Source: Paenibacillus sp. FSL R5-0766 (GTDB lineage: Bacteria; Bacillota; Bacilli; Paenibacillales; Paenibacillaceae). Taken from it: a DNA stretch of 64,000 bases. Both the position numbers and the translations under genes were made by a program. The notes beneath the pieces are model-generated. The model searched no databases, was not told the DNA's origin, and was given only the letters and a program-made list of their open reading frames with translations. Shown in pieces: positions 1-47,507 of this stretch (position 1 is the stretch's first letter; each line of letters starts with the position of its first letter). Location: assembly GCF_037971845.1 (NCBI RefSeq), contig NZ_CP150227.1, positions 2,914,001 through 2,978,000 on the forward strand. The letters run 5' to 3'.

Positions 1-338
1 GCCTGGGTTAACATTTTGCGATATCTGATGTGAGAAGTGCCATCCTGAAGGGACATCCACATTGAGAACAGACGAATAAACTCCAGAATTCCATAGAGCT
101 GTTGCTCCGAAAACTGGACTGCCCAATATTGTTGTGCCGTGTTATGGGAAATGCGTGGGTCTGCAATGTACTTGTTTACGGTTTCATATCCACCGATGTA
201 CCAAAGTCCTCCATACAGATTCACTTTGTGAATTTCGCCTTGCTGAACCAGCTGTCGATACACGTCATACGGATTACCGAAGAAGTTCTCATTATAGAAT
301 GTGGTTGGATCATTTACATCAATGACAGGCATTGACAA
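1..338 (-). CDS. Cytochrome P450, N-terminal part (gene runs off the left edge)
   Basis: Translating the minus strand from TTG at 338 gives 112 open codons with no stop to the window edge. The protein begins with a DPTTFYNENFFGNPYDVY stretch and a YIGGYETVNKYIADPRIS stretch, both typical of the N-terminal region of class I bacterial P450s. Near the visible end is W-M-S-L-Q-D-G-T-S-H-I-R-Y-R, matching the C-helix pattern W..l.D.p.H.R.R. The heme-cysteine region lies outside the window. TTG 338 is chosen because GGAGG (346-350) sits 7 nt upstream; ATG at 332 would be 13 nt away. The gene is divergent from the synthetase operon and could tailor the peptide, but adjacency is the only evidence for that. 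A P450 is not part of the classical bacitracin cluster as I know it. Confidence 0.8.
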   Translation of the reverse strand, partial: MSMPVIDVNDPTTFYNENFFGNPYDVYRQLVQQGEIHKVNLYGGLWYIGGYETVNKYIADPRISHNTAQQYWAVQFSEQQLYGILEFIRLFSMWMSLQDGTSHIRYRKMLTQ

Positions 339-384
339 GTGTTTTCCTCCTTTTATCACTCGCTTTTTTTGAAAAATAAAGGAA

Positions 385-412
385 ATTATACAAAAATAGA
401 GTAGCATGTATA
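385..412 (-). promoter_or_regulatory. Candidate promoter of the P450 gene
   Basis: On the minus strand TATAAT lies at 390-385. A weak -35 (TATACA, 412-407) is 16 bp upstream of it. The -10 match is perfect and the -35 matches 4 of 6. The leader to the TTG start would be about 40 nt. Confidence 0.35.
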
Positions 413-449
413 CTAGAATCTGTCGAGTTATGCTCAGAATATTCGCCAA

Positions 450-488
450 ATTTTACTTTCATTTTACTTAATAAAGCAAATAAGTAAA
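450..488. promoter_or_regulatory. Operator-like repeats upstream of the bacA promoter
   Basis: ATTTTACTT occurs twice as a direct repeat with an 11-bp period (450-458 and 461-469). The second copy also forms a perfect 8-bp inverted repeat, TTTACTTA (463-470) with TAAGTAAA (481-488), around a 10-bp spacer. The block ends 4 bp before the -35 box. One-turn direct repeats suit OmpR-family regulators and dyads suit dimeric repressors; the binding protein is unknown. The sequence is AT-rich, so chance contributes. Confidence 0.45.
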
Positions 489-492
489 TAGA

Positions 493-521
493 TTGACATG
501 GAAATTTTAGGATAATATAAT
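493..521 (+). promoter_or_regulatory. Consensus sigma-A promoter for the synthetase operon
   Basis: TTGACA (493-498) and TATAAT (516-521) are separated by exactly 17 bp, so both hexamers and the spacer are ideal. Transcription would start near 528, leaving a leader of about 28 nt before the ATG at 556 with AGGAAGG (541-547) as ribosome binding site. Confidence 0.8.
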
Positions 522-555
522 AAAAGTATTCTGCTTGCAAAGGAAGGATATCGTT

Positions 556-2370
556 ATGATTACTGGACATTCCAATATCAGAGAGAATCCGACAGTGAAT
601 GAGAATAGAACAGACTATCCCCGCAATCATACCATCCATCAGTTATTTCAAGAACAGGCCCGCTTGCATCCCGATGCCATTGCGGTAGCCTCAGACACCA
701 TTCAATATACGTACAAGGAAGTAGATCAGTATTCAAACCAGATTGCCGCACTTCTTCGTCAGAAGGGAGCAGACCGCGACAAAATAATCGGTATTATGTT
801 AGAGAGATCCCCTGAAATGATAATTGCTTTAATAGCCGTTCTCAAATCAGGGGCTTCTTATTTACCGATTGATTCCGAAACACCTGGGGAACGAGTGAAT
901 TATATGCTCAAGGATAGTGGGGCATGTATGCTACTGACATCTCATCCTGAAGAGAATTACATAGAATGTATCGGTTTGGAGGTTATTCATCCCACCATTG
1001 AGGATTATTGTGACCTTCCATCCGATGCATTGACGGATATTAATCAGGCAGAAGATCCGGCTTACATCATTTATACATCGGGATCAACGGGTCTCCCCAA
1101 AGGAGTGGTTATCTCTCATCGATCAGCCATTCGTGTTGTATGTAGTACCAATTACATCACCATTACGGAACAGGACCGCATGCTTCAGATGTCCAACTAT
1201 TCATTTGATGCATCGGTGTTTGAAATATTTGGAGCCCTACTGAACGGAGCAAGTTTGGTCATTATTCAGAAGGAAGAGGCACTTCACATGCCCAGCCTGG
1301 CCCGGTCCATTGAAAAAAATGGGATTACCGTTATGTTCATCACAACTGCTTTTTTTAATGCTATCGTGGAACGTGAAATATCCTGCTTCCAATCGGTTCG
1401 CAAAGTGCTCTTTGGCGGAGAAAGAGTTTCGTTAACACATGTAAAAAAAGCGCTTGATTGTATGGGGAGCGATAAGCTTATTCATGTTTATGGACCTACG
1501 GAAAGCACGGTTTTTGCCACATATTATCCTGTAAATGAAATCAAAAAGGAAGCGCTTACAGTACCAATTGGCATTCCAGTCGCTAATACCTCCGTTCTGG
1601 TATTGGATGAGCATGATCATCCCGTCCCTGTTGGAACAGCCGGGGAATTATGCATATCCGGTGATGGACTTGCGCTCGGTTATTTGAATAACGATGAACT
1701 CACAGAACAAAAATTCATTCCGCATCCCTTCTTTACATCAGAACGGATGTACCGCACGGGTGATTTGGTTCGCTGGACGCCTGAGCATACCCTTGAATTT
1801 TTGGATCGAATGGATCAACAGGTGAAGCTTCGTGGTTTTCGGATCGAGCTGGGTGAAATTGAAACCCATTTGTCCCGGCATGATGCGGTAGCAGAGGCAT
1901 TTGTCATGATGCGAACAAACGATGCAGGCCATGCCTATCTGTGTGCATATATGGTGTTGACCCAAGAAACCTCAATTGAGGAGCTGCGTCTTTTCCTGGA
2001 ACAGAGAATACCGGAGTATATGGTGCCAAGCTATTATGTCAAACTGGAGCTGCTTCCGCTGACTGCTAATGGCAAGATTAACAAAAGTGAATTACCCGAG
2101 CCGGATAGCAGCATCCATTCAGGCAGGGAATACGTTGCTCCGACAACAGAGTTGGAACAACACCTGTCCTTGATTTGGAAGGATGTACTACAAATCGAGC
2201 AATTGAGTGTAAATGACAGTTTTGCACATCTGGGGGGTCATTCCCTTAATGCCATTGAAGTGATTGCACGGATTAATGAGGATTTAAGTGCAAGTCTGCC
2301 ATTAAACCAGCTTTTTCGTCTTGGAACGATCCAAAATATAGCAACATTTTTGGAAGAAAATAATGATGAG
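556..2370 (+). other. Module 1: A(Ile)-T starter
   Basis: The A domain has core motifs YTSGSTGLPKG, YGPTES and YRTGD, then a carrier LGGHSL. Ten-residue pocket by alignment to GrsA: D-A-F-F-L-G-V-V-F-K. This is an aliphatic, Ile-type pocket (Val possible), consistent with Ile1 of bacitracin, whose amine must stay free next to the thiazoline. Confidence 0.8.
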
Positions 2371-5300
2371 GATAACACGGAGGCTTATTTTACGGATCAA
2401 GGTGATCCTGCCAATATGCTTGAGCCATTTGGTCTTACGGGTATTCAGCTGGCTTATTTGATTGGACGTGACCCTGCATTTGAGATGGGTGGAGCTGCAA
2501 CGAATTTTACGGTCGAATTCGAGGCCGAGGCGGATATGGATTTGGTTAATGCAACTTTGCAGAAATTGATCAATAGGCATCCTATATTACGAACAGTTGT
2601 GTACGAGAACGGGACACAGCAAATATTGAAAAGTCCACCGTTATACACGGTAGAAGTGATAGACGTGTCAGAATGGGATACGACATATCGTAGCTCGCAA
2701 ATGGAAGCAGAGAGACAACGAATGATGACAAAAGTGATTGTTCCAAGCGAGTGGCCATTATTTGAAATGAAAGCTTACCGAATGTCAGAGAATCAATATT
2801 ATTTTTATCTGAATCTGGACCCGCTCATCTGTGATGACAGCAGCTTGAAACTGCTCATCAAGGAATTCAAATGGCTCTATGCAAACGGGGATCAGGAGCT
2901 GCCGGAGCTTCAATATAATTTCAGGGACTACGTTCAGGCAATGGCACGTTTCAAACAGTCTGCACGTTATTTCAAGGATCAGCGCTACTGGATGGACAAG
3001 CTGGGAGACTTTCCGGGTTCTCCGGCTTTGCCGCTCAAATGTAATCCGGCAGACATAAACGTTCCCCAATTCAGCAAATTCTCGAACTTTATAACGGGTG
3101 AACATTGGAACAAGCTTAAACAGCAGGCAAGGCAGCATAACGTTACCCCAACTTCCATTTTATGCGCAGCCTATGCCTATGTACTTGCGCATTGGTCAAA
3201 CCAGGAGAGATTTGGGGTCAACCTGACCGTATTTAATCGGATTCCGTTTCATGAAGATGTGAAGAGGATGGCGGGAGACTTTACAACGCTGATGTTGCTG
3301 GATATTGATGCCCAAAAATCTCTGAATTCGTTCTGGACATTTACAGAGTCGGTGCAACATTCATTGCTGGATGCATTGGATCACAGACATTATGATGGCG
3401 TTGATTTTATAAGACAATTGGGCAAAAAACATGATATGCACAAGAGAGCAGTCATGCCAATTGTATTTACAAGTGTCTTAAATGAAAATGTGGAAGATTC
3501 ATTTGACGCTTTGTTTAACTTTGACCAGATCAAGTATTTCAGTACAAGAACCTCACAGGTTTATATTGATAATCAGGTCTATGAAATCAATGGCGGTTTG
3601 TATATCACATGGGACTTTGTGGATCAATTGTTTGAAAAAGAAGTGATTGAATCTATGTTCCAGCAGTATCTGAACATTCTGAACCAAGTGATCTCTGCAA
3701 CACAAGTTACCAAGCTTGAGTTGAGTCAAGCGAGCAGGCAACTCATCAAACAGTATAACGATACAAGCAAGCCGTTTACTCTGAAGCCTCTGCATGACCT
3801 GTTAACTGCAACAGCGATCAGATTAGGAGATCGGGTGGCGATTCAGCATCATGAACGTTCCATTTGTTACATAGAGTTGGAACGCAGATCGAATCAGATT
3901 GCCAGGTATTTGATCGATCAGGGAGTACAGCGGGGCGATTATATTGGTGTGTATGGCAAGAGATGCATTGACACCATTGTGAATATATTTGGTGTGCTCA
4001 AAGCGGGAGCAGCTTATATTCCGCTTGATCCGGACTATCCGGAGGAACGTAAGCAATATATTCGCGAAAAGGCCAACTGTAAATTTTTCATCATGCCAGA
4101 GCTATATGAGACGGAATCGTTAGAAACCTACTCTGCGGAATCCATAAACAGCGGAGTGACGAATGATGATATGGCCTATGTTATTTTTACTTCTGGCAGC
4201 ACGGGCAAGCCCAAAGGTGTGCAGATCAAGCACGGCGCAGCAGCCAATACGATCCTGGATATGAATGAAAGATTCAACGTAACCTCCAGTGATCGAATGA
4301 TGGGCATATCTTCATTATGTTTTGACTTATCCGTCTATGATATTTTCGGCGCAGTCAGCTGCGGGGCTTGTCTGGTTCTTATTGATGATCAGCGTGACAT
4401 GTTTCAGCTCAAGAACGTGATGGAACAAGAAAAAATCACCATTTGGAATTCGGTTCCTGCTCTTATGGACATGTGTGTTGATCTGTATTCACCGGGAGAA
4501 AAGAACAACGACCTTCGTCTGGTATTGCTTAGTGGTGACTGGATATCTCTACGGCTTCCTCAGAAAATAGTTGACGTATTTCCTGAATCTGAGGTGGTTA
4601 GTTTGGGAGGAGCCACTGAAGCATCGATATGGTCCATCTATTACCCAATCACGGCAGTGTCTGAGCAATGGAAGAGTATCCCTTATGGTAGACCACTAGC
4701 CAATCAACAAATTCATGTGCTGAACAGACAACTTCAACCATGCCCTCTAGATGTTGAGGGGGAATTGTACATTGGTGGAAGCGGTGTAGCAAGCGGTTAT
4801 CTTCATGACGAGGAAAAAACAAGACAGTCATTCATTGTTCATCCACAGTTCGGGTACATCTACAAGACAGGAGATTTTGGTGTCCTTCGATCCGAAGGTT
4901 ATGTGGAGTTCCTGGGCAGAAAAGATAGCCAGGTCAAAATCAAAGGTTATCGGGTAGAACTTGGTGAAATTGAGAACGTACTTTTGCAAGCTGAAGATGT
5001 GCAAAAGACAGCCGTAATTGATGTTGCTGACGAGAACGGAGTCAAAAGCCTCTTTGCCTTTGTTGTTACAGATCAGGATGTGGACACACTGCCACTGAAA
5101 GCTCTTTTGCAAAGTAAATTACCAAATTACATGGTTCCGTCCATGTTCCTGAATGTAGATGAAGTTCCGCTTACTGCCAATGGCAAGGTCAACAAAGCGA
5201 CACTTGAACAAGTGGCAAGGCAGCATCAACTCACTGTTCGTGAACATGCTGTAGTGGATACAGAGCCTGTCAATTCCATTCAGGAACAGCTGCTTCAGAT

Positions 5301-16386: not shown

Positions 16387-16538
16387 CAGTTCGTTCTTTA
16401 AGTTCAATAAATGACTCAATGATCCGAGAGAGACTGCATCACGTATTGATTGCCCCTTAATTAGACGAGATGTAAAGGTGCAGTTTCTCCCGGAATTCCA
16501 TGTCTTAGGCGTCATACTGAAAGGAATGGTGAATTCCT
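16387..16538 (+). other. bacA-bacB junction with a long RNA stem-loop
   Basis: The 152-bp gap holds a 13-bp stem (16428-16440 with 16477-16489, including two G-T pairs) around a 36-nt loop. No T-run follows, so it is not a standard terminator. Nearer the start codon, GGAAT (16523-16527) can pair with ATTCC (16533-16537) and would cover the AAGGA ribosome binding site of bacB. The gap could tune the ratio of the two synthetases or protect mRNA ends. Confidence 0.4.
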
Positions 16539-16700
16539 ATGAACATTGCGGAGTTTATGAATCTTTTACAGAGAAGAAATGTGAAATTGTACCATCAAGA
16601 CGGGAAAATCAAAATGATTGGACCGCGTGAGGAAATCAATGCTGATCTTAAATCACAGATTAAAGAACACAAACAGGCTCTAATTCAGTTTCTGGTCCAT
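16539..16700 (+). other. TubC-type N-terminal docking domain
   Basis: About 50 residues before the first C-domain motif (YPLSRAQKRM) form a short helix, a beta-rich segment KLYHQDGKIKMIGP and a second helix (LKSQIKEHKQALIQFL). This is the pattern of TubC-type docking domains at NRPS subunit junctions. It sets subunit order by binding the C-terminal tail of the preceding synthetase. Confidence 0.75.
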
Positions 16701-24377: not shown

Positions 24378-24446
24378 TATTTGTCTATTTTCATCCCATG
24401 TTTAGGACAGCTTAGGTACGATCCAATAAGGAGATGATATCGGTCC
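24378..24446 (+). promoter_or_regulatory. bacB-bacC spacer with ribosome binding site
   Basis: The 69-bp gap shows no hairpin or promoter. AAGGAG (24428-24433) lies 13 nt before the ATG of bacC, an unusually long spacing. The in-frame codon just upstream is a stop, so no earlier start is available. Confidence 0.5.
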
Positions 24447-27400: not shown

Positions 27401-27610
27401 TCGCATTTGCACCATATGGAAAGAAATTTTGGGAGTGCAGATTGCGGGGGTTCATGATCACTTCTTTGAGTCCGGCGGTCATTCACTCAAAGCGACAGCA
27501 CTGACATCACGAATTCACAAAGAGATTCAGGTGATGGTGCCGATCCGACAGCTTTTCCTTGCTCCAACCATCCGAGGTATTGCCAATTACATTGAATCTG
27601 CTGCCAAAGA
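24447..27610 (+). other. Module 8: C-A(Ile)-T
   Basis: The D-to-L type C domain (FHHMILDGWS) fits receipt of a D residue from module 7. The pocket D-G-F-F-L-G-V-V-F-K is identical to that of module 5 and predicts Ile. The carrier motif is SGGHSL. Confidence 0.85.
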
Positions 27611-42600: not shown

Positions 42601-43679
42601 TGCTTGACGAGCTTCCCGCATATATGATACCTGCATTCTTTGTTGTGATGGATCAGCTCCCATTGACGGTGAACGGAAAAGTGGACTTGAAGGCATTGCC
42701 TGAGCCTGAGGGTAGTGTGACAGCTCTGCAATCCTACACACCACCGGAAACGGAACTGGAACGACACATGACAGATATTTGGGAGGACGTTCTTCCAGTG
42801 AAGCCGATTAGCATACATGCAAATCTGTTTGAACTGGGTGCGAATTCGTTAAATGTGATGTCTTTTGTATCCCGATTGTACAGTCTGTTGAATTTTAGAA
42901 TTCCGTTTAAGGATATTTTTGAAAAACCGACCATTGCTGATCTGGCGGCCTTTGTTGAGAAAGCCAAAGATCTGCTGGAGGACTACACCGAAGATTGCAT
43001 GCAGCTAACCCGGACAAGCGAGAATAATCGGATCGTTTTCTGTTTTCCTCCCGCTGCTTCCATGGGGATTGCCTACATGACACTTGCTCAGCATCTGGAC
43101 TCGTTCGGAGTTTACAGCTTTAATTTCATCACTTCAGAAGATCGGATTGCTCGTTACGCTCAAATGATGATTGATATTCAAAAGGAGGGCCCATTCACGC
43201 TGATGGGTTACTCCTCGGGTGGAGTGCTGGCCTTCGATGTAGCCAAAGAGCTTAACCGCAGAGGATATGAAGTGCGTGACCTGATTATACTGGACTCAAA
43301 ATACCGAACAGAAGTGGAAGAGCATCGTCTGACTGAAGAAGAAATCAGGCAGGAGATTCAGCAAAAGTTCAACATGAGTCAATATCAGGACCTTGAGAAA
43401 TTGGCGAATGACTATTTGCTGGAGCTGATTACGAAGTCTTACCTGTATGTTCATGAAGCCATAACCTTTGGTACGATTGATGGTAACATCAGTTATGTGA
43501 CTTCAGGACTTTTGGATGCCAATGCTTCGATTGCATTGTGGGCCCAATCCACCACAGGACAATTCAGACAAGTGAAAGGTTACGGCAAACATATGGAGAT
43601 GATTGACAAAAATTATCCGGAGATTGTGAAACAGAATGCAACGCTCATCAACGAACTCTTGCTGACAAGCACTAAATAA
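24447..43679 (+). CDS. bacC: Bacitracin synthetase 3-like NRPS (modules 8-12, TE)
   Basis: This 6410-residue protein has the order C-A-T / C-A-T-E / C-A-T / C-A-T-E / C-A-T-TE, matching BacC. Pocket codes predict Ile8, an aromatic residue at 9, Thr10, Asp11 and Asn12; E domains make residues 9 and 11 D. Thr10 differs from the His of bacitracin. There is no separate N-terminal docking domain: the first C domain begins within about 9 residues (KIYPLSPMQKGMLF). The terminal thioesterase has GYSSGG (nucleophile Ser codon 43212-43214) and the later LILDS segment. By analogy it releases the peptide by joining Asn12 to the Lys6 side chain. The last carrier domain reads LGANSL rather than LGGxS. A terminator follows at once. 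Confidence 0.95.
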   Translation: MKAKVEKIYPLSPMQKGMLFHALQNPSEDAYFEQTVLDIRGEIDPEILEQSFNQLLERHEILRASVHTKLEEPVHVVLARRTIGFTFHDLRGRSDDEVAALMQDFMEKDRAKGFNLSKDNLLRIALVCNGEQHFQMIWTFHHMILDGWSMGILFNELLDIYADRSNGLPSKMADTRPYSNYMKWLQQQEQESGLGYWEHYLSGYSEKTGLPSINRSTSEMSFSRREKKIEFSQALTTKIKEMAQKHAVTLHTVIQAIWGFLLAKYNDNEDAVFGTVVSGRDAAVDGIENMVGLFINTIPTRVTFCGEQPFVELMKKIQSDALNSQAYQYLSLAEVQARTELKHDLLDHVVVFENYALDTRKMAERSNLGFEINEITGEERTNYPFTMAAGLGEKLTLLLIYDEHVYEPALMDQIEMHMKAIIHQITSDERIHIQDITLVLNDELPILEQHSMGVVTNYPQWKTISQLFDEQVQKTPHATALIMDDVHITYRELQEKADQMASRLYEFGLPKQAVVGLLADRSIEMIAGILGILKAGAAYLPMDPGWPEERISHMLQDSRAAVLLTQPEWISQAPLNFPMLPLYVDYMDHMPAVMEMAAATQVMEVKPDKESRMDDLAYMIYTSGSTGLPKGVMISHANVIRVVCETDYIDICPEDRILQLSNYAFDGSVFDIFGALLNGASLVLLKQDTVLDTQALAEVIVREKVTVSFMTTALFNLLVDREPECLRGFRKILFGGERASVAQARKGLDILGADRLIHVYGPTESTVFATAYPIRSIEAAVTNLPIGKPIANTSVWVMDRYQNPVPAGIPGELCISGDGLSLGYLNNKELTDSRFVPHPLLEGTRMYRTGDRVRRLPNGDIEFLERLDHQVKLRGYRIELGEIEHVLLEHEGIREGVVVTRKDAADQDILIAYLKADPALTITGIRTYVSERLPDYMVPSYFILLNELPLTGNGKVDRRALPEPAECIEHLKHDQYEAPSTVLENRICTIWKEILGVQIAGVHDHFFESGGHSLKATALTSRIHKEIQVMVPIRQLFLAPTIRGIANYIESAAKEDYLSIQPAESKPYYALSSAQRRLHMLHQISDTGTSYNMPAVMRVSGKLDVARFEEAFRQLVQRHESFRTSFVIVDGEPVQRIHSHVPFAVEHIEPGSRSLEETLSDRIRPFELGKAPLMRIELVKISEQEHVVVMDMHHIIADGVSTGVLVQEFHELYAGKSLPELKLQYKDYSEWQKDWFNSEGLKTQETYWLNRFEGEIPVLQLPTDWPRPQVYSFKGNRVRFVCDEQLTHELHQLARDHEATLYMVLLAAYTTLLSRYSGQDDIVVGSPIAGRKHADLQQVIGMFVNTLAMRNYPVAERSFNDFLGEVKENALQAYENQDYPLDELINKLHVSRDRSRNALVDTMFVLQNLELERAYGQQWGDLHVEPYETELPIAKFDLTLAAVEQNGQLEFELEYCSDLFSLQTVENMGNHFIQLLKGILSNPQGKLGEFEVVSEEEKQTLQYVYNDNTCSYPLHQRVYEWIEQNALRTPDQVAVVHNGRSMSYHELNEAADLLAARLRQRGVTREMVVGIMMDRSVEMIAGILGIMKSGGAYLPLDPSTPVERIRYMLRDSGARLIVTQNHWSDRLRAADSECVTLILDEAALKDWNAAASLLIPSVADSATMTTNPDDLAYIIYTSGSTGMPKGVQVEQCALTNFCCGYIDALQLTERDRVANYLQMTFDASISEIFPALMSGATLHIIPTELRLDVSRLNEYLSEYGITAATFSSKVCESFVELPNSSLRLLVSGGEQLKLHALPNYRLINAYGPTENTVVTTLHEVDSIDGVIPIGKPFTNTRIFILNDHLQFCPTGVTGEMYITGQSLARGYLNNPELTAEKFVDNPHEPGGKMYRTGDLVRWLPGGNLQFMGRTDQQVKIRGYRIELGEIEQQLLKHPVIRETAVLAHQDPQGNGALCAYVVAEGEAVWTAATVRDWLEAELPDYMIPAYVVQLDQLPLTSHGKLDRKALPEPDHHLPAGPETEAPRNEVERLLVEVWRDVLNMEELGINHQFFVSGGDSIKALQIGSRLARAGLRMEVRDLFAYPKIRDLSPYVKWDQRERRSQEPVEGEVRLTPIQQWFFANNTTERNHFTQSFMLHRAAGFKPDVLEQVLDRLLEHHDALRMRYEIQPDGSIRQFNRPVHTGERMYTLHRFDTRGWDEPERQVYEAATRVQQACNLEEGKLVQVGWFEAEDGDHLLLAIHHLVVDGVSWRILLEDLEVLYQQAERGEALDAGEKTDSYQHFAEAVQDYANSPQAAKERAYWSRLAAEGAGLNLGEREEAAGPDRFADSHTVQNTLSAEVTRHLLRESNRAYQTEINDLLLSALYLSVRKLTGELKLKVNLEGHGREDVLEGIDLSRTVGWFTTLYPVLLEGEAEDELSTTIKRVKEGLRKVPHKGFSYGALKYVARMPELQAERPASISFNYLGEMDGGMIGEAMFRESRFSTGQTIGGHIARNNPIELNTFVSGGKLHLNVTANQTAVDMPLVSRFAETFLKQLTEIVDHCLCQRETTYTPSDYGDPSLALEELDLIKSACPGVIIERIYPLTNMQQGMLFHAMEDETSTAYFQQTVMEIRGEVNPDYLQSSFNELMNRHEALRASFMHHDLEEPRQVIMQNLTIEFEFQDWTALEAHHSAAQLETFTQQDKARSFRLDTQPLMRAALFRTTDESYTLVWSHHHILLDGWCLGIILSELFQIYKAKLENKAHNLKEPKRYHHYIEWLIRQDKDEAQAYWRRYLENYDTQSSVPGLLLTEHDVPYLRKEQTISLGQELTRQLNEIGARNGVTLNTVIQCIWGLVLARYNDTEDVIFGTVVSGREAPVEGIEEMIGLFINTIPVRIGYQHQKHFGDVLQAVQKQAVESQRFNYLNLAEVQALSDLNKELMDHVFVFENYALDHGAVQQSSTGVGFEITGLHAEEQSNYGFLISATPGDSLTLVITYDGNKYDSSIIERMDQHFRSVAEQVTSADHHQLADIQLVGGQECEVLLNSFNNSDADYPRNMTIHELFQQQVRRTPDRIAVRDEHRHMTYMELNERSNQLARTLFSLTGGTEQFIGIMADRSVDMIVGIMAVLKAGAAYIPVDPTYPDDRISYMLEDSGIRLLVVSEKGMDRGLHRGLCVVLEEENSYHLDAGNLEISVQSHDLAYVIYTSGTTGNPKGTLIEHKNVVRLLINDRNRFNFSENDVWTMFHSFCFDFSVWEMYGALLYGGTLLIVPHLVAQQPGEFLQLLIREKVTILNQTPSYFYRLMHEEAKRPRKELSLRKVIFGGEALSPSLLTAWHKRYPSTKLINMYGITETTVHVTYKEITLSDMQMGRSNIGQPIPTLRAYILNQYRQLQPVGCAGELYVAGEGLARGYLNRSSLTEERFVEDPFYPGEKMYRSGDLARWRADGNMEYLGRMDHQVKIRGYRIELGEIEHQLLQLYIVKDAFVVARADEEHTQFICAYITLNEAADDAVTQQIRQQLSLQLPDYMMPAYIVKMDQLPLTSNGKVDRKALPAPEAGMSALGGYEAPGSRVEAELLALWHQLLNNDRIGVNHNFFEVGGHSLKASALVSRVHKAFGVAIPLRQVFATPTVRALSKWIDSARSSKYVTITKAESKEYYPLSSAQKRLFIMHQLEDSSLAYNMPYAMKISGNLDVRQLERAFQDLIKRHESFRTSFHMVDGQPVQRIDQQVEFRITSLELGDQTLGAWQARFVRPFNLTQAPLLRVELVQMGPAEYSLIMDMHHIIADGASMGVLTRELSALYEGQTLEPLQLQYRDYAEWQALSRTTEVMQAQKDYWLSAYQEEVPLLDLPIDYARPQHRNYEGELFPFELSEGVSQRLSQLAHQEGVTLFMLLLAGYTTLLHRYTGQEDIIVGTPVAGNSQPELENVIGLFINTLALRNRPVGTFTFKEYLNEIKENTLQAYENQDYAFDELVEQLALTRDMSRSALFDTMLVFQNYDSEELAIEGVQFSSLPPSNIRSKFDITLTAMEAEGRIKCVFTYSTELFKPETIERMAGHLTELLDNISNDAALRLQDIQFITSEETKSIMQVSCGQPVQFRTDAALIELFEEQVRKSSGQRAVVSGENELSYEELNRRANQLARSLRSRGAAPNSVIAVSMNPSVDLIISMLAVLKTGAIYLPIDPEQTVNRTNVILNDSQAILVLTDHPLSKELSFSGDVCQVNDSSIESFDYTDLSLPISPEQQVYMIYTSGSTGTPKGVMVRNRNIVNYTQWFIREAGVSAADRTMLMSSSAFDLGYTGVFSSLLQGGELHVPSKEDYTNPARILQIMAQQRITFIKLTPSLFNLLLHDAAFAEWQPVLRLVVLGGEKTNTTDVEKYLQEFPNSRIMNHYGPTETTIGVVFHNISSVNVRSFIDHPVIGRPIDNTVVYVLDKHNHLVPRGVFGEICVSGEAVSSGYFNQVEMTREKFVEDPFQPGQIMYKTGDLARWTHDDELELAGRKDNQVKVRGYRIELDEIKKQMLLLEGVREAVIVPGANQERATVLCAYFTANRSIPLDEIRVHLGVELPEYMIPTHFMQLDTLPLTGNGKLDVRALPEPDASMGGEMVYEPPRNEAESLLVSIWEEVLGFKPIGINHHFFASGGDSIKALQIISRLSRAGKKLTMKELFANPQIKLLGRYVREDSHVDRMKQRVTGPVDLTPIQKSYFLQHQRTGMNHFNQSLMLYREEGFNPEIVRQIMEGLMMHHDVLRMSYREEQGKVVQTHLDYEAGLFQLDVQDMNALDEQELYTRVQQAASKIQESIEIFEGPLVRAVIFRTDQGDHLVIVIHHMLIDGVSWKILLEDLAIGYQQLLEGQDLSFYPVTDSYPYYAAFLSDYAKGGRLAKERAYWIKTDQEEAGFLPRNEVHLSEYRYGDNRMSSVSLDREMTTQLLRETNQAYYTEINDILLAALALSIKECAGASKVKVTMEGHGRELMGDELDISRTVGWFTSKYPVCIHLGNEEGLGTTIKEVKEQLRRVPAKGIGYGILKYMTTELPKLKEQTPLLLFNYLGQMDQDINSGLFRSSWLPAGNSVGDDVIRANPMEVIAYVAEGQLMINITYNHKLFDNSIVENFATSYQKMLQLIIEHCAQQQQAEKTPSDYGDPYVTLQNLKVITQKFGPERIEKIYPLANMQRGMLYHALENRGDRVYFEQLIMNIRGNLDIDRFQESLNLLMQRHEMLRASIEYQVTEEPRNIICQNRGAAFVYRDLRGLPEQDRDTRVLSIAMEDKRKGFDLGKDTLVRFELLQTNEEQYSLIWSNHHILLDGWARGIILAELVHLYECKRTGKNIQLHEPVPYSEYVEWLQALNKDEAISYWKNVLGGYENKVQLPAGISRSLNDGVTPQEHQFRISRQLTKQMNDLANRNHVTFYTVMQCVWGIMLAKYNDTSDVVFGTVVSGREAQVSGIENMVGLFINTIPARIQWDEGHTFKQLVGDMQALSIEGSQHHHLGLAEIASLSSLKRDLIDHIMVFENYSVDSSLVEQGANDIGFVIEDVHSQEQTNYGFNLIAIPGEELVIKFAYDSGKYDESLMKVMENHMLTLLKRIVTDENMRVDDIQIMTKQEQIILLDQYNDTGSAYPKGKTMHQLVSEQVLKTPEHVAVALGSDVLTYRHLEIKSNQLARHLKAIGVGYNSMVGIMVERSPEMIVGILAIMKAGGAYVPIDPEYPAERIAFILEDSGSSIILEREEGHTVSGRTSVAIDADYSHYSAEPLEQHAGPEDVAYVIYTSGSTGKPKGTMIPHSGLINYIFWAKDVYLQNRELDFALYSSFAFDLTITSIFTPLVTGNKIVVYPTSGDEPVILNVFRDRQAGVVKLTPSHLNLIKDMDNTRSSIKCLIVGGEDLKSELAREVYESFGGKVQIFNEYGPTETVVGCMIHPYNPETDTRISVPIGKPAANVQLYVLNKHQQLLPAGSPGELYIGGDGVSRGYFGRPELTMQKFVPNPFKEGTILYRTGDLVQWLPNGDMEFLGRIDHQVKIRGYRIEPGEIEHRLLQQPEVKDAIVTSRQDDSQQSYLCAYIVPVDLSKKMDIVQLKQGLLDELPAYMIPAFFVVMDQLPLTVNGKVDLKALPEPEGSVTALQSYTPPETELERHMTDIWEDVLPVKPISIHANLFELGANSLNVMSFVSRLYSLLNFRIPFKDIFEKPTIADLAAFVEKAKDLLEDYTEDCMQLTRTSENNRIVFCFPPAASMGIAYMTLAQHLDSFGVYSFNFITSEDRIARYAQMMIDIQKEGPFTLMGYSSGGVLAFDVAKELNRRGYEVRDLIILDSKYRTEVEEHRLTEEEIRQEIQQKFNMSQYQDLEKLANDYLLELITKSYLYVHEAITFGTIDGNISYVTSGLLDANASIALWAQSTTGQFRQVKGYGKHMEMIDKNYPEIVKQNATLINELLLTSTK
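27630..32140 (+). other. Module 9: C-A(Phe/Tyr)-T-E
   Basis: The C domain has HHIIADG. The pocket D-A-S-T-V-G-A-V-V-K is an aromatic-type code. Ser at the third position, as in one known Tyr code, leaves Phe against Tyr open; bacitracin has D-Phe9. The E domain has HHLVVDG and RTVGWFT. The second half shares the near-identical block with module 7. Confidence 0.75.
30072..31802 (+). repeat. 1731-bp A(C-term)-T-E block, copy in module 9
   Basis: Ungapped partner of 22275-24005 and in the same reading frame. Flanking sequence diverges on both sides within a few codons. The equal length and lack of indels point to recent duplication or gene conversion between the two synthetase genes. Confidence 0.95.
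32150..35300 (+). other. Module 10: C-A(Thr)-T
   Basis: The D-to-L type C domain has HHILLDG. The pocket D-F-W-N-I-G-M-V-H-K is identical to the textbook threonine code (FDFSVWE, VTILNQTP, VIFGGE, INMYGITETTVH). The carrier motif is VGGHSL and no E domain follows. Bacitracin has His at this position. Confidence 0.88.
35320..39830 (+). other. Module 11: C-A(Asp)-T-E
   Basis: The C domain has HHIIADG. The pocket D-L-T-K-V-G-H-I-G-K is a classic Asp code. The A8 core reads RIELDEIK rather than RIELGEIE. The carrier motif is SGGDSI. The E domain has HHMLIDG and RTVGWFT. This predicts D-Asp11 as in bacitracin. Confidence 0.85.
39840..43679 (+). other. Module 12: C-A(Asn)-T-TE
   Basis: The D-to-L C domain has HHILLDG. 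The pocket D-L-T-K-I-G-E-V-G-K is a classic Asn code. The carrier motif is LGANSL (about 42829), with Ala in place of the second Gly. The thioesterase (about 43000-43679) has the GxSxG elbow at 43206-43220. Confidence 0.85.
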
Positions 43680-43685
43680 TATTTC

Positions 43686-43727
43686 AAGGTTGGCGTTTCG
43701 TGAGTCAGAAACGCCAACCTTTTTTTT
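43686..43727 (+). terminator. Strong intrinsic terminator after bacC
   Basis: A perfect 14-bp stem (43686-43699 with 43708-43721) encloses an 8-nt loop and runs into eight T residues. It ends only 18 bp before the bacR start codon, leaving no room for a promoter between them. Confidence 0.9.
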
Positions 43728-43745
43728 AGAAAGAAGGTTGAAATC

Positions 43746-44453
43746 ATGCAAAATATTCGTGTACTCATTGCGGATGACGATAAGGAGATTCGAGACCTGA
43801 TCCGAAAATACCTGGAGCGGGAGATGTACACCGTAGATACTGCCGCAGATGGTGAACAAGCGCTGCAGCTGTTTCAACAGCACAAATATAATATGGTCAT
43901 TCTTGACCTGATGATGCCTCAGATGGACGGTATGGAGGCTTGTCGAAGAATTCGCAGTATCAGTAATGTACCCATCATGATGGTGACAGCCAAAGACCAC
44001 GAAACAGATAAAATTATAGGTCTTGGCATCGGTGCAGATGATTACATTACCAAACCATTTAGCATTCATGAACTGGTTGCTAGAATTAAGGCACTCATGC
44101 GTAGATTTATGGTTCTTGGGACGGAGGTTCCTGACCATAGTGAGGTCATTCGCTTCAAAGGATTGATGATGAATTTGAAAACATACACAGTTGATGTCCA
44201 GGGAAAAGAGACCGATCTGACTGGCAAAGAAACAGAATTGCTCAAATTTATGATGTCCAATCCTGGCCAGGTGTTCACCAAAGCCCAATTATTCAGGAAT
44301 GTATGGGATAATGGGTATTTGGATGATGACAATACCGTCATGGTACATATCCGAAAGCTACGAATGAAGATTGAATCCGATCCTTCGAATCCACAGTTTA
44401 TAAAAACCGTTTGGGGTATCGGTTATAAATTTGTAGGTGAACGGGATGAATAG
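43746..44453 (+). CDS. bacR: OmpR-family response regulator BacR
   Basis: This 235-residue protein has a receiver domain with the acidic cluster DDD10-12, the phospho-acceptor Asp54 (VILDLMMP) and the conserved Lys in ITKPF. It is followed by a winged-helix DNA-binding domain (about 135-230, ending VHIRKLRMKIE..VWGIGYKF). AGAAGG lies about 8 nt before the ATG. The gene overlaps the kinase gene by 8 bp. Position between the synthetases and the exporter matches bacR of B. licheniformis, where the system responds to bacitracin and controls the bcr transporter. Likely targets here are the TAAG repeats upstream of bcrA. Confidence 0.9.
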   Translation: MQNIRVLIADDDKEIRDLIRKYLEREMYTVDTAADGEQALQLFQQHKYNMVILDLMMPQMDGMEACRRIRSISNVPIMMVTAKDHETDKIIGLGIGADDYITKPFSIHELVARIKALMRRFMVLGTEVPDHSEVIRFKGLMMNLKTYTVDVQGKETDLTGKETELLKFMMSNPGQVFTKAQLFRNVWDNGYLDDDNTVMVHIRKLRMKIESDPSNPQFIKTVWGIGYKFVGERDE

Positions 44454-45486
44454 AGATGCCATCTTGATTTTATCCGGTCTACAGTTGATCATCGGAGCTG
44501 GGGCACTTGCTCTGGAATACTACACGAGCTTGACGCATGGTTCACGAATGTGGTTGTTTGCAGCGTTTGTTTTCACCAGCATCTGCGTACTCGTTAATCA
44601 ATATCAGATTCGAAGCAAGCAGCAATCGATTGCTTCTGAACTGCATCGGGCGGTCAATGGAGAAGGAAAAAGAAGAATATTAAGCAAAGGGAATGTACTG
44701 CTGGATGAGATCGTTTTTGCAGCAAATGACCTGATGGAGCAGCTTGAAAGCGTAAATATCGAGGCCCAGCGCTCTCAGGCAGTAAGAAAGAGTCTGCTTT
44801 CCAGCATTTCTCATGATATTCGCACACCTCTAACTTCGATGATTGGTTATGTGGATGCGCTCAAGGATGACATTGCTTCGACAGAAGAAGAGAGAAGAGA
44901 CTATATGGATATTTTGTCGCGAAAATCGAAGGACTTGAAAAAAATGATAGATGAGATGTTCACCATGGCCAAACTGGATGCAGACGAGATGCCCATGCAG
45001 GCTGAGCCGTTGGATCTGGCCGAATTGACCAGGGAGATTTTGATTGAATTTATACCCAGTCTCAAAAAAGCAGAGATGGATCTAAAAATTCAGATCCCGG
45101 ATTATCCTTGTTTCGTTATGGCAGACAGGCTGAGTATCAATCGCCTCATCAGTAATCTGATTCAAAATTCTATCCAGTATGGACATGAAGGGGGCGTTCT
45201 GGGAATTGAGATAACATGTTATCATCTTAATTTCCAATTAACCGTATGGGATCAGGGACCAGGGATATCAGAGAAAGAGCTAAATCTGGTGTTTGAACGT
45301 ATGTATCGCAGTGACCACTCACGTAGCCCTGTCTTTGGGGCAAGCGGGCTTGGGCTTTCAATTGCCCGGACATTGGCTGAGAAAAATGAGGGGTATTTGC
45401 AGGCAGAGAGCAAACCTGGCGTGAAAACATCCTTTATATTCACAATCCCCAAGTATAAGCGGCTGTCAAAGTCACAGCACAATTAA
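44446..45486 (+). CDS. bacS: Short-sensor histidine kinase BacS
   Basis: This 346-residue kinase has two N-terminal membrane helices joined by only a few external residues (LTHGSR), the intramembrane-sensing layout of kinases that watch peptide-antibiotic transporters. The phospho-acceptor is His123 (SISHDIRTPLTSM). The ATPase domain has NLIQNSIQYG, DQGPGIS and GASGLGLSIA. ATG 44446 is preferred because AGGTGA lies 5 nt upstream; a GTG three codons earlier is possible. The ATGAATAG overlap with bacR indicates translational coupling. Confidence 0.9.
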   Translation: MNRDAILILSGLQLIIGAGALALEYYTSLTHGSRMWLFAAFVFTSICVLVNQYQIRSKQQSIASELHRAVNGEGKRRILSKGNVLLDEIVFAANDLMEQLESVNIEAQRSQAVRKSLLSSISHDIRTPLTSMIGYVDALKDDIASTEEERRDYMDILSRKSKDLKKMIDEMFTMAKLDADEMPMQAEPLDLAELTREILIEFIPSLKKAEMDLKIQIPDYPCFVMADRLSINRLISNLIQNSIQYGHEGGVLGIEITCYHLNFQLTVWDQGPGISEKELNLVFERMYRSDHSRSPVFGASGLGLSIARTLAEKNEGYLQAESKPGVKTSFIFTIPKYKRLSKSQHN

Positions 45487-45536
45487 GAGATAGTTAAGAT
45501 TTGGATAAGCGCTATTTAAAATCTGAAACCTAGAAT
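45483..45536 (+). promoter_or_regulatory. Candidate BacR-controlled promoter of bcrAB
   Basis: TTAAGA occurs at 45483-45488 and 45494-45499, and the core TAAG recurs at 45506-45509, giving three repeats with an exact 11-bp period (TAAG at 45484, 45495 and 45506). A TAGAAT -10 candidate lies at 45531-45536 with no good -35; the repeats end where the -35 would be. This is the usual layout for activation by an OmpR-family regulator. Confidence 0.5.
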
Positions 45537-45572
45537 GAAATTATCAGTTCTTGGAAGGAAGGTGCGCTAGAC

Positions 45573-46490
45573 GTGAGTGTAATTATCAAAACAACAAATC
45601 TTACCAAACAATACGGGACTCAAAAATCAGTTAATTCACTGAACATGACCGTTCAACAAGGTGGGATATACGGCTTTCTTGGACGCAACGGGGCAGGGAA
45701 AACGACGACAATCCGTATGCTGCTCGGTCTAATCAAACCAACGCATGGTGAGATTGAGATATTTGGAGAGAACCTATTTACCAATCAAAAAGAAATATTA
45801 AGAAGAACCGGCTCGATTGTAGAAGTACCCGGGTTTTATGAGAACCTGACTGCCCGCGAAAATTTATCCATCAACGCTCGAATTATGGGGATATACAAAA
45901 AGAATGCAATTGAGGACTCGCTCGAAATCGTAGGTCTGCAAAATGAAACCAAAAAATTGGTTGGCAAATATTCTTTGGGAATGAAACAAAGGTTAGGCAT
46001 TGCCCGAGCCCTGTTGCACTATCCAGAATTACTGATTCTTGATGAACCTACCAATGGACTTGATCCGATTGGGATCAAAGAAATTCGCAGGCTGATTAAA
46101 AATTTGGCCACGGAGAGAAATATTACCATCTTGATCTCAAGCCATATTTTATCGGAAATTGAACAACTGGTTGATTACATGGGCATTATTCATGAAGGGA
46201 ACCTGCTGGAGGAAATTTCATTTGAGCAGCTTCGGAAAAGGAACCGTAAATACACCGAATTTCAAGTTTCAGATGATAATAAGGCTGCGGTCATTCTCGA
46301 CGGTTTGGATCAGGCTGAATATGAAATTCATGATGAACGCAATATCCGGGTGTATTCCCATTTGGGACAACAAGGTAAGTTAAACAGAATCTTTATGGAG
46401 AATGACATCAATGTAACCAAAATTATGGTGAGTGAGGATCGTTTGGAAGATTATTTCACCAAGCTGGTTGGAGGTGGAACCATTGGTTAA
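45573..46490 (+). CDS. bcrA: ABC transporter ATPase BcrA (bacitracin export/immunity)
   Basis: This 305-residue ATPase has Walker A GRNGAGKT (residues 37-44), signature YSLGMKQR, Walker B LLILDEPTNGLD and the switch His in SSHILSE, followed by the C-terminal extension usual in drug-export ATPases of this group. Length and context match BcrA of B. licheniformis. The start is GTG 45573 with GGAAGGAAGG about 8-10 nt upstream. It energizes the BcrB permease and protects the producer. The 3' end overlaps bcrB by 8 bp. Confidence 0.9.
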   Translation: MSVIIKTTNLTKQYGTQKSVNSLNMTVQQGGIYGFLGRNGAGKTTTIRMLLGLIKPTHGEIEIFGENLFTNQKEILRRTGSIVEVPGFYENLTARENLSINARIMGIYKKNAIEDSLEIVGLQNETKKLVGKYSLGMKQRLGIARALLHYPELLILDEPTNGLDPIGIKEIRRLIKNLATERNITILISSHILSEIEQLVDYMGIIHEGNLLEEISFEQLRKRNRKYTEFQVSDDNKAAVILDGLDQAEYEIHDERNIRVYSHLGQQGKLNRIFMENDINVTKIMVSEDRLEDYFTKLVGGGTIG

Positions 46491-47220
46491 TTTGCTTTAC
46501 ACTGAACTTCTCAAGCTGAAACGCTCCAAAATGTTTCTGCTTAGTATCATCGGAGCGGCCGTTGCCCCTTTGATGGTAGCTGCTGCCATGTTTGTACAAA
46601 TGAAAACAAAGGAGCCTTATCTTGTCGCACAATTCAGTGTGCTTATGTCCAACACAAGCATATATGCTGTACTGGTCATTGGAGTTCCGTTGTATGGTGT
46701 CATTACCGCTTATCTGTATAACAGGGAATATGCGGAGGATACAATGAAGAATCTGCTGACCATTCCGGTTTCCAGAGTCGCTCTGCTAATGTCCAAATGG
46801 ATTATGTTGCTGGGATGGATTATGTTGCTTACATTATCAGCGTGGGCGCTGGCGATCATTTTTGGTTCACTGGGTCAATTTGCAGGTCTTACTCCACAGT
46901 TTGTGCTTAACTCGCTCAGCAATTATGTAGTGGCAGGACTGCTGTTGTTTCTGTTGTCCACCCCGATCATTCTGATTACGCTCGTATTAAAAAGTTTTGT
47001 GCCAGCGATTATCGTAACCATTATTATTACACTGGTGAATGTGATGCTGGCTACAAGTGAACATCGCGGACTATTTCCATGGACCGCAGCACTGGATATC
47101 GCGAATGGAACACTGGAAGCCAAATATCCTCCAGAGTATTCTTATATTTCGATCGCTGCGACGTTCATCATCTGTCTTGGACTGGCCATTGGTTATTTTA
47201 AGAAAATAGATATTCATTAG
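46483..47220 (+). CDS. bcrB: ABC-2 type permease BcrB
   Basis: This 245-residue membrane protein has about six hydrophobic helices and an N-terminal LLYTELLKLKRSK segment typical of ABC-2 export permeases. TTG 46483 is chosen as start because GGAGGTGG (46470-46477) precedes it by about 6 nt; the open frame extends further upstream but inside bcrA. The overlap with bcrA implies coupled translation. The partner phosphatase gene bcrC is not found downstream. Confidence 0.85.
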   Translation: MVNLLYTELLKLKRSKMFLLSIIGAAVAPLMVAAAMFVQMKTKEPYLVAQFSVLMSNTSIYAVLVIGVPLYGVITAYLYNREYAEDTMKNLLTIPVSRVALLMSKWIMLLGWIMLLTLSAWALAIIFGSLGQFAGLTPQFVLNSLSNYVVAGLLLFLLSTPIILITLVLKSFVPAIIVTIIITLVNVMLATSEHRGLFPWTAALDIANGTLEAKYPPEYSYISIAATFIICLGLAIGYFKKIDIH

Positions 47221-47308
47221 ATCTTGTCTTCAAACTTATCCAAACCTTCTCCGAAACATACAAAATCCTAATCAAGTCGGTCGCATATGACTGCGAAAAA
47301 CATAATGG

Positions 47309-47345
47309 AGAAGCCCTGATCAGTATGGATCAGGGCTTCTTTTTC
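47309..47345 (+). terminator. Terminator after bcrB
   Basis: A 13-bp perfect stem (47309-47321 with 47328-47340) and a 6-nt loop run into a T stretch. It closes the bac/bcr cluster. Confidence 0.85.
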
Positions 47346-47385: not shown

Positions 47386-47388
47386 GTT

Positions 47389-47416: not shown

Positions 47417-47507
47417 GTTCTCGTTTTACGAAAGCGGATGGAAAGCATAACGTCCACTGCCTGTTCCCCAATATCACTTAATGATATATACTTACCTGAT
47501 GGAATAT

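What the first reader, a model, noticed from the sequence alone, without database searches (positions are those of the whole stretch)
1..47220. Bacitracin-type assembly line in a Paenibacillus-like genome
The three synthetases match BacA/B/C in size, order of all domains and position of the four E domains, the Cy domain and the TE. They are followed by bacRS and bcrAB in the B. licheniformis order. The predicted product is a ring-closed dodecapeptide with an N-terminal thiazoline: Ile-Cys-Leu-D-Glu-Ile-Lys-D-X-Ile-D-(Phe/Tyr)-Thr-D-Asp-Asn. Two positions differ from bacitracin, so it would be a new or little-known congener. I cannot tell whether it has been reported.
Basis: partly seen in the sequence, partly recalled or inferred. 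Interest (0 to 1): 0.85.

Follow-up and report, generated by a model that had tools for sequence, protein, structure and literature searches.

The report
Paenitracin-type (bacitracin-like) antibiotic gene cluster
This stretch of a Paenibacillus-type genome encodes a complete assembly line for a bacitracin-like antibiotic that very probably is the recently published paenitracin, and it sits beside a second, uncharacterised assembly line with which it seems to be inherited as one block.

Summary
Three synthetases (5+2+5 modules; E in modules 4, 7, 9, 11; Cy in module 2; terminal TE) precede a two-component system and a BcrAB-type transporter. Codes predict Ile-Cys-Leu-D-Glu-Ile-Lys-D-X7-Ile-D-X9-Thr-D-Asp-Asn: three positions (7, 9, 10), not two, differ from bacitracin. 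Paenitracins (Leu7, Trp9, Thr10; PMC13011432, February 2026) fit, also in computed mass, so the product is almost certainly known. The window's strain cannot be tied to the published one, and Leu7/Trp9 are not proven by codes. Three features were not in the text I saw. (1) Modules 7 and 9 share a 1.7-kb tract homogenised within genomes (95.2% here, 99.7% in a relative, 62.0% in B. paralicheniformis): gene conversion. (2) A ~75-kb trans-AT polyketide synthase lies upstream, also in P. durus (same order) and Brevibacillus dissolubilis (same ends). Its AT reaches 72% or more in exactly the 6 of 394 family genomes with BacB; the next full-length hit is 60%. (3) Residue 10 changes by A-core replacement: B. 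paralicheniformis and B. haynesii BacC are 95.0% identical outside, 32.9% inside. bacT and bcrC of B. paralicheniformis are absent here.

The parts
3..449 (-). N-terminal part of a cytochrome P450 gene that continues outside the window (L084:13100-14449); junction gene between the upstream polyketide synthase and bacA
   Evidence: ORF lists; PF00067 E 7.8e-36 on the whole ORF; 62.5% identical P450 at the same place in Brevibacillus dissolubilis
493..521 (+). perfect sigma-A-type promoter hexamers TTGACA-17-TATAAT before bacA (consensus match only)
   Evidence: 12 of 12 matches; the scan of 1-1500 gave 12 sites of 9 or more matches, 4.5 expected
535..16386 (+). BacA-type synthetase (ORF from TTG 535; likely start ATG 556): A1(Ile)-T-Cy-A2(Cys)-T-C-A3(Leu)-T-C-A4(Glu)-T-E-C-A5(Ile)-T
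16539..24377 (+). BacB-type synthetase: TubC_N docking - C-A6(Lys)-T-C-A7(DGITIGAVAK, Leu expected)-T-E
   Evidence: 91% P0001, 61% P. durus, 46-47% Bacillus BacB
22268..23963 (+). module 7 copy of the 1.7-kb tract (C-terminal part of A, T, E) that is homogenised with module 9; limits approximate
   Evidence: within-window DNA identity 95.2% over 1660 aligned bases, 53.6% before A and 47.8% after E; spacing 7797; trees
24447..43679 (+). BacC-type synthetase: C-A8(Ile)-T-C-A9(DASTVGAVVK, Trp expected)-T-E-C-A10(Thr)-T-C-A11(Asp)-T-E-C-A12(Asn)-T-TE
30065..31760 (+). module 9 copy of the homogenised tract; limits approximate
33999..34496 (+). module 10 adenylation core (code DFWNIGMVHK, Thr); approximate limits. 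The homologous core is the one exchanged between Thr and His types in Bacillus
43032..43631 (+). C-terminal thioesterase domain, expected to close the Lys6-Asn12 lactam (GYSSGG at 43206)
   Evidence: PF00975 E 1.2e-24
43746..44453 (+). BacR-type response regulator
   Evidence: PF00072+PF00486; best matches 68-70% in three Bacillus, 75% in B. dissolubilis
44437..45486 (+). BacS-type histidine kinase
   Evidence: PF00512+PF02518
45573..46490 (+). BcrA-type ABC transporter ATPase
   Evidence: PF00005; best NCBIfam model TIGR03740, below its cut-off
46432..47220 (+). BcrB-type ABC permease
   Evidence: PF12730; found in 6 of 75 same-genus genomes, own included

Best explanation
A complete paenitracin-type member of the bacitracin family. 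The 12-module line builds Ile-Cys-Leu-D-Glu-Ile-Lys-D-Leu-Ile-D-Trp-Thr-D-Asp-Asn. The Cy domain condenses Ile1-Cys2 into an aminothiazoline and the TE closes a ring from Lys6 to Asn12. The product is expected to bind undecaprenyl pyrophosphate with zinc, and BacRS to sense it and induce the BcrAB exporter for self-protection. Shown here: module order, E/Cy/TE placement, signature codes, gene neighbourhood. Inferred: Leu7 and Trp9 (codes alone do not settle them), ring closure, target, sensing and self-protection. The new residue at 7 goes with a module whose A-T-E part is homologous to, and repeatedly converted with, that of module 9.
For: 12 of 12 codes were extracted. Against B. paralicheniformis, 6 of 12 are identical (2, 3, 4, 6, 11, 12), 3 of 12 differ by one or two residues and stay Ile-like (1, 5, 8), and 3 of 12 differ (7, 9, 10). 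The meaning of the standard codes is recalled. The same extraction on P. terrae NRRL B-30644 gave an order consistent with tridecaptin as I recall it. The four complete pabuli-group clusters (window, G051, G003, P. pabuli) share all 12 codes; fragmented G066 gives 11 readable codes, all the same. Computed [M+H]+ for Leu7/Trp9/Thr10 is 1424.7606 and [M+2H]2+ 712.8839; the paper reports 1424.7584 found, 1424.7611 calculated, and 712.8836. Phe9 or Tyr9 would give 1385.75 or 1401.74. The four C domains that follow an E domain carry HH[IM][LI]LDGW, the six other C domains do not, as D-accepting C domains do (recalled).
Against: The published codes and sequence of strain JJ-778 (CP194855) were not in the collections I searched, so identity with that cluster is untested. 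Codes 7 (DGITIGAVAK) and 9 (DASTVGAVVK) had no exact match among the other A domains compared here outside the pabuli group, nor in paper texts. The aromatic codes of the tridecaptin locus (DAWAFAGVAK, DAWTFAGVAK) do not resemble code 9 closely. bacT and bcrC of the B. paralicheniformis cluster are missing.
Confidence: 0.92

Rival explanations
1. A distinct, unreported bacitracin congener: same scaffold and Thr10, but other residues at 7 and/or 9 (for example Phe/Tyr at 9), or a mixture from relaxed A domains.
For: Codes 7 and 9 cannot be read with certainty; P. durus and B. dissolubilis show that these two positions drift.
Against: The pabuli-group genomes found share the codes, and the one characterised Paenibacillus peptide found has Leu7/Trp9/Thr10. 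The paper's own prediction saw differences at 7, 9 and 10.
Confidence: 0.07
2. Ordinary bacitracin A, or another NRPS family that only resembles BacABC.
For: Overall order, E/Cy/TE positions and neighbours are those of bacitracin.
Against: A7, A9 and A10 codes differ from B. paralicheniformis. A7 core identity falls to 27% (BacB 1753-1854) and A10 core to 26% (BacC 3203-3322), while the whole proteins are at 47-51%. The five ~2,600-aa TubC_N proteins in the best 120 come from taxa in which I then found bac clusters.
Confidence: 0.01
3. Homogeneity of modules 7 and 9 is an assembly artefact (repeat collapse), not gene conversion.
For: G003 and P. durus copies are 99.7 and 99.6% identical, and repeats of this kind are hard for assemblers. 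I could not see reads.
Against: Window, G051 and P. pabuli copies still differ by 2-7%. Flanks are unique, reading frames are open, and the pocket part is less alike than the tract in 8 of 8 genomes.
Confidence: 0.08

Closest known systems
Paenitracin A/B (Paenibacillus sp. JJ-778; Machushynets et al., mSystems 2026, PMC13011432; parts 1-3 of 6 of the text, two sections and found passages seen; supplement not seen)
   Same: 12 modules, E in modules 4, 7, 9, 11, differences from bacitracin at 7, 9 and 10, Thr10; computed mass for Leu7/Trp9/Thr10 equals the reported one
   Different: No sequence of JJ-778 was available to me. The main text has no 'PKS', 'transporter' or 'bcrA', and 'polyketide' only in references.
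Bacitracin synthetase cluster of Bacillus (B. paralicheniformis KJ-16, L017/G080)
   Same: 5-2-5 modules, Cy in module 2, E in 4, 7, 9, 11, then RR-HK-BcrA-BcrB-sized ORFs; 6 of 12 codes identical and 3 of 12 near-identical
   Different: A7 Orn-, A9 Phe-, A10 His-type codes; has bacT (TEII) upstream and a PAP2 (BcrC) gene after bcrB, both absent here; no polyketide-synthase-sized ORF in the 7.8 kb upstream
Bacitracin-type cluster of P. durus (G179/P0007)
   Same: same layout, 9 of 12 codes identical; same upstream polyketide synthase gene order and uppP
   Different: single-residue code changes at 1, 7 and 9; no P450 gene between PKS and bacA
Bacitracin-type cluster of Brevibacillus dissolubilis CHY01 (L012/G079)
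   Same: same layout, Thr10 code, ORFs of bacRS-bcrAB size, polyketide synthase and P450 upstream
   Different: codes at 1 (DAWLVGAILK), 7 (DVATEGAIWK) and 9 (DACTIGSVVK) differ

Membership tests
Bacitracin family synthetases | 12 modules in three proteins, 5-2-5, in the order A, B, C | tested here: met
Bacitracin family synthetases | heterocyclisation (Cy) domain in module 2 with Ile-Cys codes in modules 1-2 | tested here: met
   DPLICDDSS at BacA 762, same motif in B. paralicheniformis; codes
Bacitracin family synthetases | E domains in modules 4, 7, 9, 11 | tested here: met
Bacitracin family synthetases | C-terminal TE for the Lys6-Asn12 ring | tested here: met
   TE domain present; ring closure itself not tested
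Bacitracin family synthetases | bacRS two-component system and bcrAB transporter downstream | tested here: met
Bacitracin family synthetases | bcrC (PAP2) next to bcrAB and bacT (TEII) upstream, as in B. paralicheniformis | tested here: not met
   no such ORF in window 47100-47700 or among the ORFs upstream. These are accessory genes, so this does not exclude membership.
Bacitracin family synthetases | zinc-dependent binding of undecaprenyl pyrophosphate | not testable with these tools
   the paper reports zinc-dependent antagonism by C10PP for paenitracin
Paenitracin branch | Thr at position 10 | tested here: met
   code DFWNIGMVHK (specificity recalled)
Paenitracin branch | Leu at 7 and Trp at 9 | tested here: inconclusive
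   codes differ from the Orn and Phe types of B. paralicheniformis, but no characterised reference with the same code was found
Paenitracin branch | product mass 1424.76 [M+H]+ | not testable with these tools
   computed 1424.7606 if Leu7/Trp9/Thr10; not measured
Paenitracin branch | sequence identity with the JJ-778 cluster (CP194855) | not testable with these tools

The most novel reading that the evidence does not exclude
The window holds one half of a ~125-kb two-antibiotic supercluster: a 15-KS trans-AT polyketide synthase (with AT-PfaD, an MBL-fold hydrolase, a P450, a probable membrane protein of no known family and an extra UppP) plus a bacitracin-type line. The two halves were co-inherited in three lineages (P. 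pabuli group, P. durus, Brevibacillus dissolubilis) because the two products act together on the lipid-carrier/cell-wall cycle, in the manner of streptogramin pairs. Within it, module 7 is repeatedly rewritten from module 9, with the substrate pocket kept apart by selection, so that peptide diversification by gene conversion is under way.
Probability: 0.3. Interest if true: 0.82.

Novelty: new member of a known kind. Interest (0 to 1): 0.5.

Why it matters
The peptide itself is a known kind (paenitracin, 2026). What the locus adds can be tested at once. (1) A natural record of how nonribosomal peptides change: internal gene conversion between modules 7 and 9, and exchange of the A10 core between Thr and His types in Bacillus synthetases that are otherwise 95% identical. 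The P. durus A7 and A9 domains are near-identical outside the pocket, yet are expected to load different residues. (2) A conserved coupling with an uncharacterised trans-AT polyketide synthase predicts a partner compound and perhaps synergy, which would explain why the two occur together in the Paenibacillus and Brevibacillus genomes examined.

Tried and rejected
Ordinary bacitracin A: rejected on codes 7, 9 and 10 and core identities. A chance match to a generic NRPS: rejected; ~2,600-aa hits with TubC_N are few and distinct. bcrC elsewhere: the best genomic match of B. paralicheniformis BcrC is 33% over 136 residues (with one TAA inside the match), so no clear orthologue was found; seven PAP2 hits and three UppP genes exist in the genome. 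A paper search with code strings found no paper for codes 7 and 9. I tried to name the upstream polyketide synthase through paenimacrolidin (listing; passages only). Aleti 2015 (PMC4397504) reports a paenimacrolidin-like PKS in P. durus DSM 1735 with 9 KS and says such machineries may work without a TE. The one found here has 15 KS and a TE, so I did not equate them; P. durus also has a second AT, 58% identical, at 2577290. The ~260-aa protein next to uppP matched no Pfam or NCBIfam family at a meaningful level; by eye it recalls polyprenol/dolichol-kinase-like proteins, untested. In one search the row with G434 aligned only 3465 residues outside the core and was dropped from the argument. The 'KS0' labels come from a crude motif and are not used; only the KS total is. 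TycB was not used as a Trp standard because its third module gave a Leu-like code. Signature positions were placed by PheA landmarks that I recalled; one search printed alignments to LgrA, not to PheA itself. Fetched but not analysed: L108, L135, L157-L166, so the polyketide genes of G051, G003 and P. pabuli rest on the AT hits and on the short upstream stretches and, for P. pabuli.
Full report
WHAT IS THERE. The window is G000:C1:2914001-2978000 of a 7.0-Mb single-contig genome. ORFs 535-16386, 16539-24377 and 24447-43679 encode synthetases of 5283, 2612 and 6410 aa. Pfam finds Condensation, AMP-binding, AMP-binding_C, PP-binding, one TubC_N docking domain (BacB) and one Thioesterase (BacC end); a weak PapA_C match in BacC is below its cut-off. 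The domain order is A-T-Cy-A-T-C-A-T-C-A-T-E-C-A-T / C-A-T-C-A-T-E / C-A-T-C-A-T-E-C-A-T-C-A-T-E-C-A-T-TE. It is supported by the Cy motif DPLICDDSS at BacA 762, E motifs at modules 4, 7, 9 and 11, GGDSI carriers before each E, and HH[IM][LI]LDGW in the four C domains that follow an E. The first gene probably starts at ATG 556, behind a perfect TTGACA-17-TATAAT at 493-521; that is a consensus match, not proof of a promoter. A response regulator, a histidine kinase, an ABC ATPase and an ABC permease follow.

WHAT IT MAKES. Signature codes were read from an alignment anchored on conserved motifs: 1 DAFFLGVVFK, 2 DLYNLSLIWK, 3 DAWFLGNVVK, 4 DAKDIGVVDK, 5 DGFFLGVVFK, 6 DAESIGSVCK, 7 DGITIGAVAK, 8 DGFFLGVVFK, 9 DASTVGAVVK, 10 DFWNIGMVHK, 11 DLTKVGHIGK, 12 DLTKIGEVGK (the last K is assumed, not read; positions by recalled PheA landmarks). 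Against B. paralicheniformis 6 of 12 are identical, 3 of 12 differ by one or two residues and stay Ile-type, and 3 of 12 (7, 9, 10) differ. The amino-acid meaning of the standard codes is recalled. As a check on the method, the P. terrae NRRL B-30644 locus gave an order (Ser, aromatic, Ser, Dab/Orn-type twice, aromatic, Glu, then Val-type) consistent with tridecaptin as I recall it. Thus the product is Ile-Cys-Leu-D-Glu-Ile-Lys-D-X7-Ile-D-X9-Thr-D-Asp-Asn.

IT IS PUBLISHED. Paenitracins A and B from Paenibacillus sp. [quoted passage not shown] I read parts 1-3 of 6 of the text, two sections and found passages; the supplement was not seen). My computed ions for that peptide, 1424.7606 and 712.8839, fit the reported 1424.7584 and 712.8836. 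Codes 7 and 9 alone do not prove Leu and Trp; no paper text in the library holds the two strings searched. The strain's sequence (CP194855) was not available, so I cannot say whether the window is that strain, a relative, or neither.

RELATIVES. The BcrB permease is found in 6 of 75 same-genus genomes, own included: five at 98-100% and one at 53%. The 53% case (G074) lies beside ORFs of regulator and kinase size (no family search made), and no ORF over 230 aa in the 80 kb fetched shows the A3 motif; it is probably a resistance-only operon. Matches to the N-terminal 520 residues of BacB that start at residue 1 occur in 6 of 394 family genomes (G000, G051, G003, G020, G066, G179) among the rows listed; only the top 3 candidates per genome were scored and the row list was cut. 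A match starting at residue 1 occurs in 1 of 39 genomes of the family of B. dissolubilis, and full-length BacB in 5 of 44 Bacillus genomes (G078, G077, G080, G409, G434). Identity of window BacA/B/C: G051 97-98%, G003 95-96%, P. pabuli 91-94%, P. durus 62-65%, B. dissolubilis 55-58%, B. paralicheniformis 47-51%.

HOW POSITIONS 7 AND 9 CHANGED. Within the window, modules 7 and 9 are 95.2% identical in DNA over 1660 aligned bases from behind the substrate pocket to the end of E. They are 53.6% identical before A, 64.3% in the pocket part and 47.8% after E. The spacing is 7797 (that tool lists a 300-nt family with a third copy at 61%). Within-genome values for the same tract are G051 97.8, G003 99.7, P. 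pabuli 92.7, P. durus 99.6, B. dissolubilis 75.0, B. paralicheniformis 62.0 and B. swezeyi 63.8. Orthologues of window vs G003 are only 93.9 (module 7) and 95.3 (module 9). In a FastTree tree of the tract, the two modules of G003 and of P. durus pair with each other (support 1.000 each); in the tree of the region before A, module 7 and module 9 copies of Paenibacillus and Brevibacillus form separate groups (1.000 and 0.998). This is the pattern of gene conversion. Against a simple picture: the window and P. pabuli copies do not pair in the tract tree, the B. dissolubilis pair has support 0.000 there, and the B. paralicheniformis modules pair in all three trees. In P. durus the converted part covers nearly the whole A domain, with a dip to 75-89% over the pocket, and the A7/A9 codes there differ at two residues (DGITIGAVVK, DASTIGAVVK). 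The likely account is that the A-T-E of module 7 was overwritten from module 9, intermittently, and that the pocket then changed or was kept apart by selection; the direction is inferred.

HOW POSITION 10 CHANGES IN BACILLUS. BacC of B. paralicheniformis and B. haynesii (a 3786-aa fragment in the stretch fetched) is 95.0% identical over 3429 aligned residues outside the A10 region and 32.9% over 155 residues inside the core; the codes are DSELTAEVCK (His-type) and DFWNIGMVHK (Thr-type). B. haynesii is 88.2% identical to B. swezeyi in that core, more than in the rest (77.6%). Thr10 is also coded in P. durus, the pabuli group and B. dissolubilis; His10-type codes occur in B. paralicheniformis, B. 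sonorensis and G434. So a Thr10 bacitracin is predicted for B. haynesii and B. swezeyi. The papers listed for these names were not opened, so I make no claim that it is unreported.

THE NEIGHBOUR. Directly upstream of bacA, mostly outside the window, lie a P450 gene (its N-terminal part at window 3-449) and a ~75-kb trans-AT polyketide synthase. It comprises an AT-PfaD protein (a 99% relative is named trans-AT polyketide synthase/acyltransferase/oxidoreductase by its source), six further large ORFs and a last one with TE, 15 KS domains by a profile built here. Gene order is the same in P. durus (51-58% identity in the large ORFs, 15 KS), without the P450. In B. dissolubilis (14 KS) the two ends agree: AT-PfaD 64%, first ORF KS-DH, last ORF with TE, P450 62.5%. 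The middle ORFs hit each other at 40-49% but not strictly in order. 47 of 394 family genomes have an AT-PfaD hit at E <= 1e-200 (top 2 candidates per genome scored). The six with 72-100% identity are exactly the six genomes with BacB; the next full-length hit is 60%, and one partial hit (G275, 443 residues) is 67%. In the four genomes where both lie on one contig, the AT ends 88.2-88.6 kb before bacB; in G020 and G066 they lie on different contigs. Five of the six are close relatives, so there are two lineages in this family, plus Brevibacillus; counting genomes overstates the independence. In the protein search, hits above 62% that cover 95% or more of the query are only the pabuli-group-like entries (90-99%), P. 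durus (72%) and B. dissolubilis (64%), in the best 120 of 1937; shorter matches reach 64%. At the far end stands an UppP gene: 89.7% identical to the one at the same place in P. durus, 48.6% and 31.2% to the two other UppP of the same genome, and not found in the 28 kb of B. dissolubilis checked. Since the window cluster lacks bcrC, UppP may take its role; this is inference. The paenitracin paper's main text has no 'PKS' and 'polyketide' only in references. Two searches for such a pairing listed 8 and 2 papers, none with such a title; of these I saw only passages of PMC5100339.

VERDICT. A real, complete bacitracin-type cluster whose product is very probably the published paenitracin: little surprise in the peptide. 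The value lies in the module 7/9 conversion, the A10 core exchange and the conserved coupling with an uncharacterised polyketide synthase. Whether the two products act together is open.

Noticed in passing
window 3-449 (-) and upstream: L084, L144-L147, L156: A ~75-kb trans-AT polyketide synthase plus P450 directly upstream of bacA, also beside the bacitracin-type genes in P. durus and Brevibacillus dissolubilis; its AT (72% or more) occurs in the same 6 genomes as BacB among 394.
   Followed up: partly
L144:16350-17189 (G000:C1:2836350-2837189): Extra uppP (undecaprenyl-diphosphatase) at the far end of the polyketide genes, 89.7% identical to the one at the same place in P. durus; two other uppP in the genome are only 49% and 31% identical to it.
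   Followed up: partly
L144:17315-18103; homologues L152:11912-12691, L148:12200-12958 (-): Probable membrane protein of about 255 aa, 61-83% conserved at the edge of the three polyketide clusters, with no significant Pfam or NCBIfam match; by eye like a polyprenol kinase.
   Followed up: partly
window 22268-23963 and 30065-31760: 1.7-kb tract shared by modules 7 and 9, homogenised within genomes (concerted evolution).
   Followed up: yes
L141 (B. haynesii BacC), L105-L107 (B. swezeyi), L102-L104 (B. paralicheniformis): A10 core replacement: 95.0% identity outside, 32.9% inside; predicts a Thr10 bacitracin in B. haynesii and B. swezeyi.
   Followed up: partly
L136-L138 (G434, a Bacillus): Divergent bacitracin-type cluster with Asp-type code at 4 and the unusual code DATTIGACVK at both 5 and 9, His-type at 10.
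   Followed up: no
L099-L101 (Brevibacillus dissolubilis): Bacitracin-type cluster with different codes at 1, 7 and 9, and Thr10; apparently another congener.
   Followed up: partly
L095-L098 (G074, about 58503-62001 of the reversed stretch): BcrB homologue (53%) next to regulator- and kinase-sized ORFs, with no A3 motif in the ORFs over 230 aa of the 80 kb fetched: probably a resistance-only operon.
   Followed up: no
window 47579-51699: AraC-type regulator fused to a periplasmic-binding-protein domain followed by two FecCD permeases: probably a siderophore-uptake operon next to the cluster; ORFs of matching size follow the cluster in G051 and G003.
   Followed up: no
window 51940-54967: LuxR-type regulator (weakly BagY/FevT-like) divergent from a methyltransferase and a saccharopine-dehydrogenase-like protein; function unknown.
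   Followed up: no
window 56899-59968: Dockerin-like protein next to a cohesin + SLH-domain protein: perhaps a two-gene cell-surface pair.
   Followed up: no
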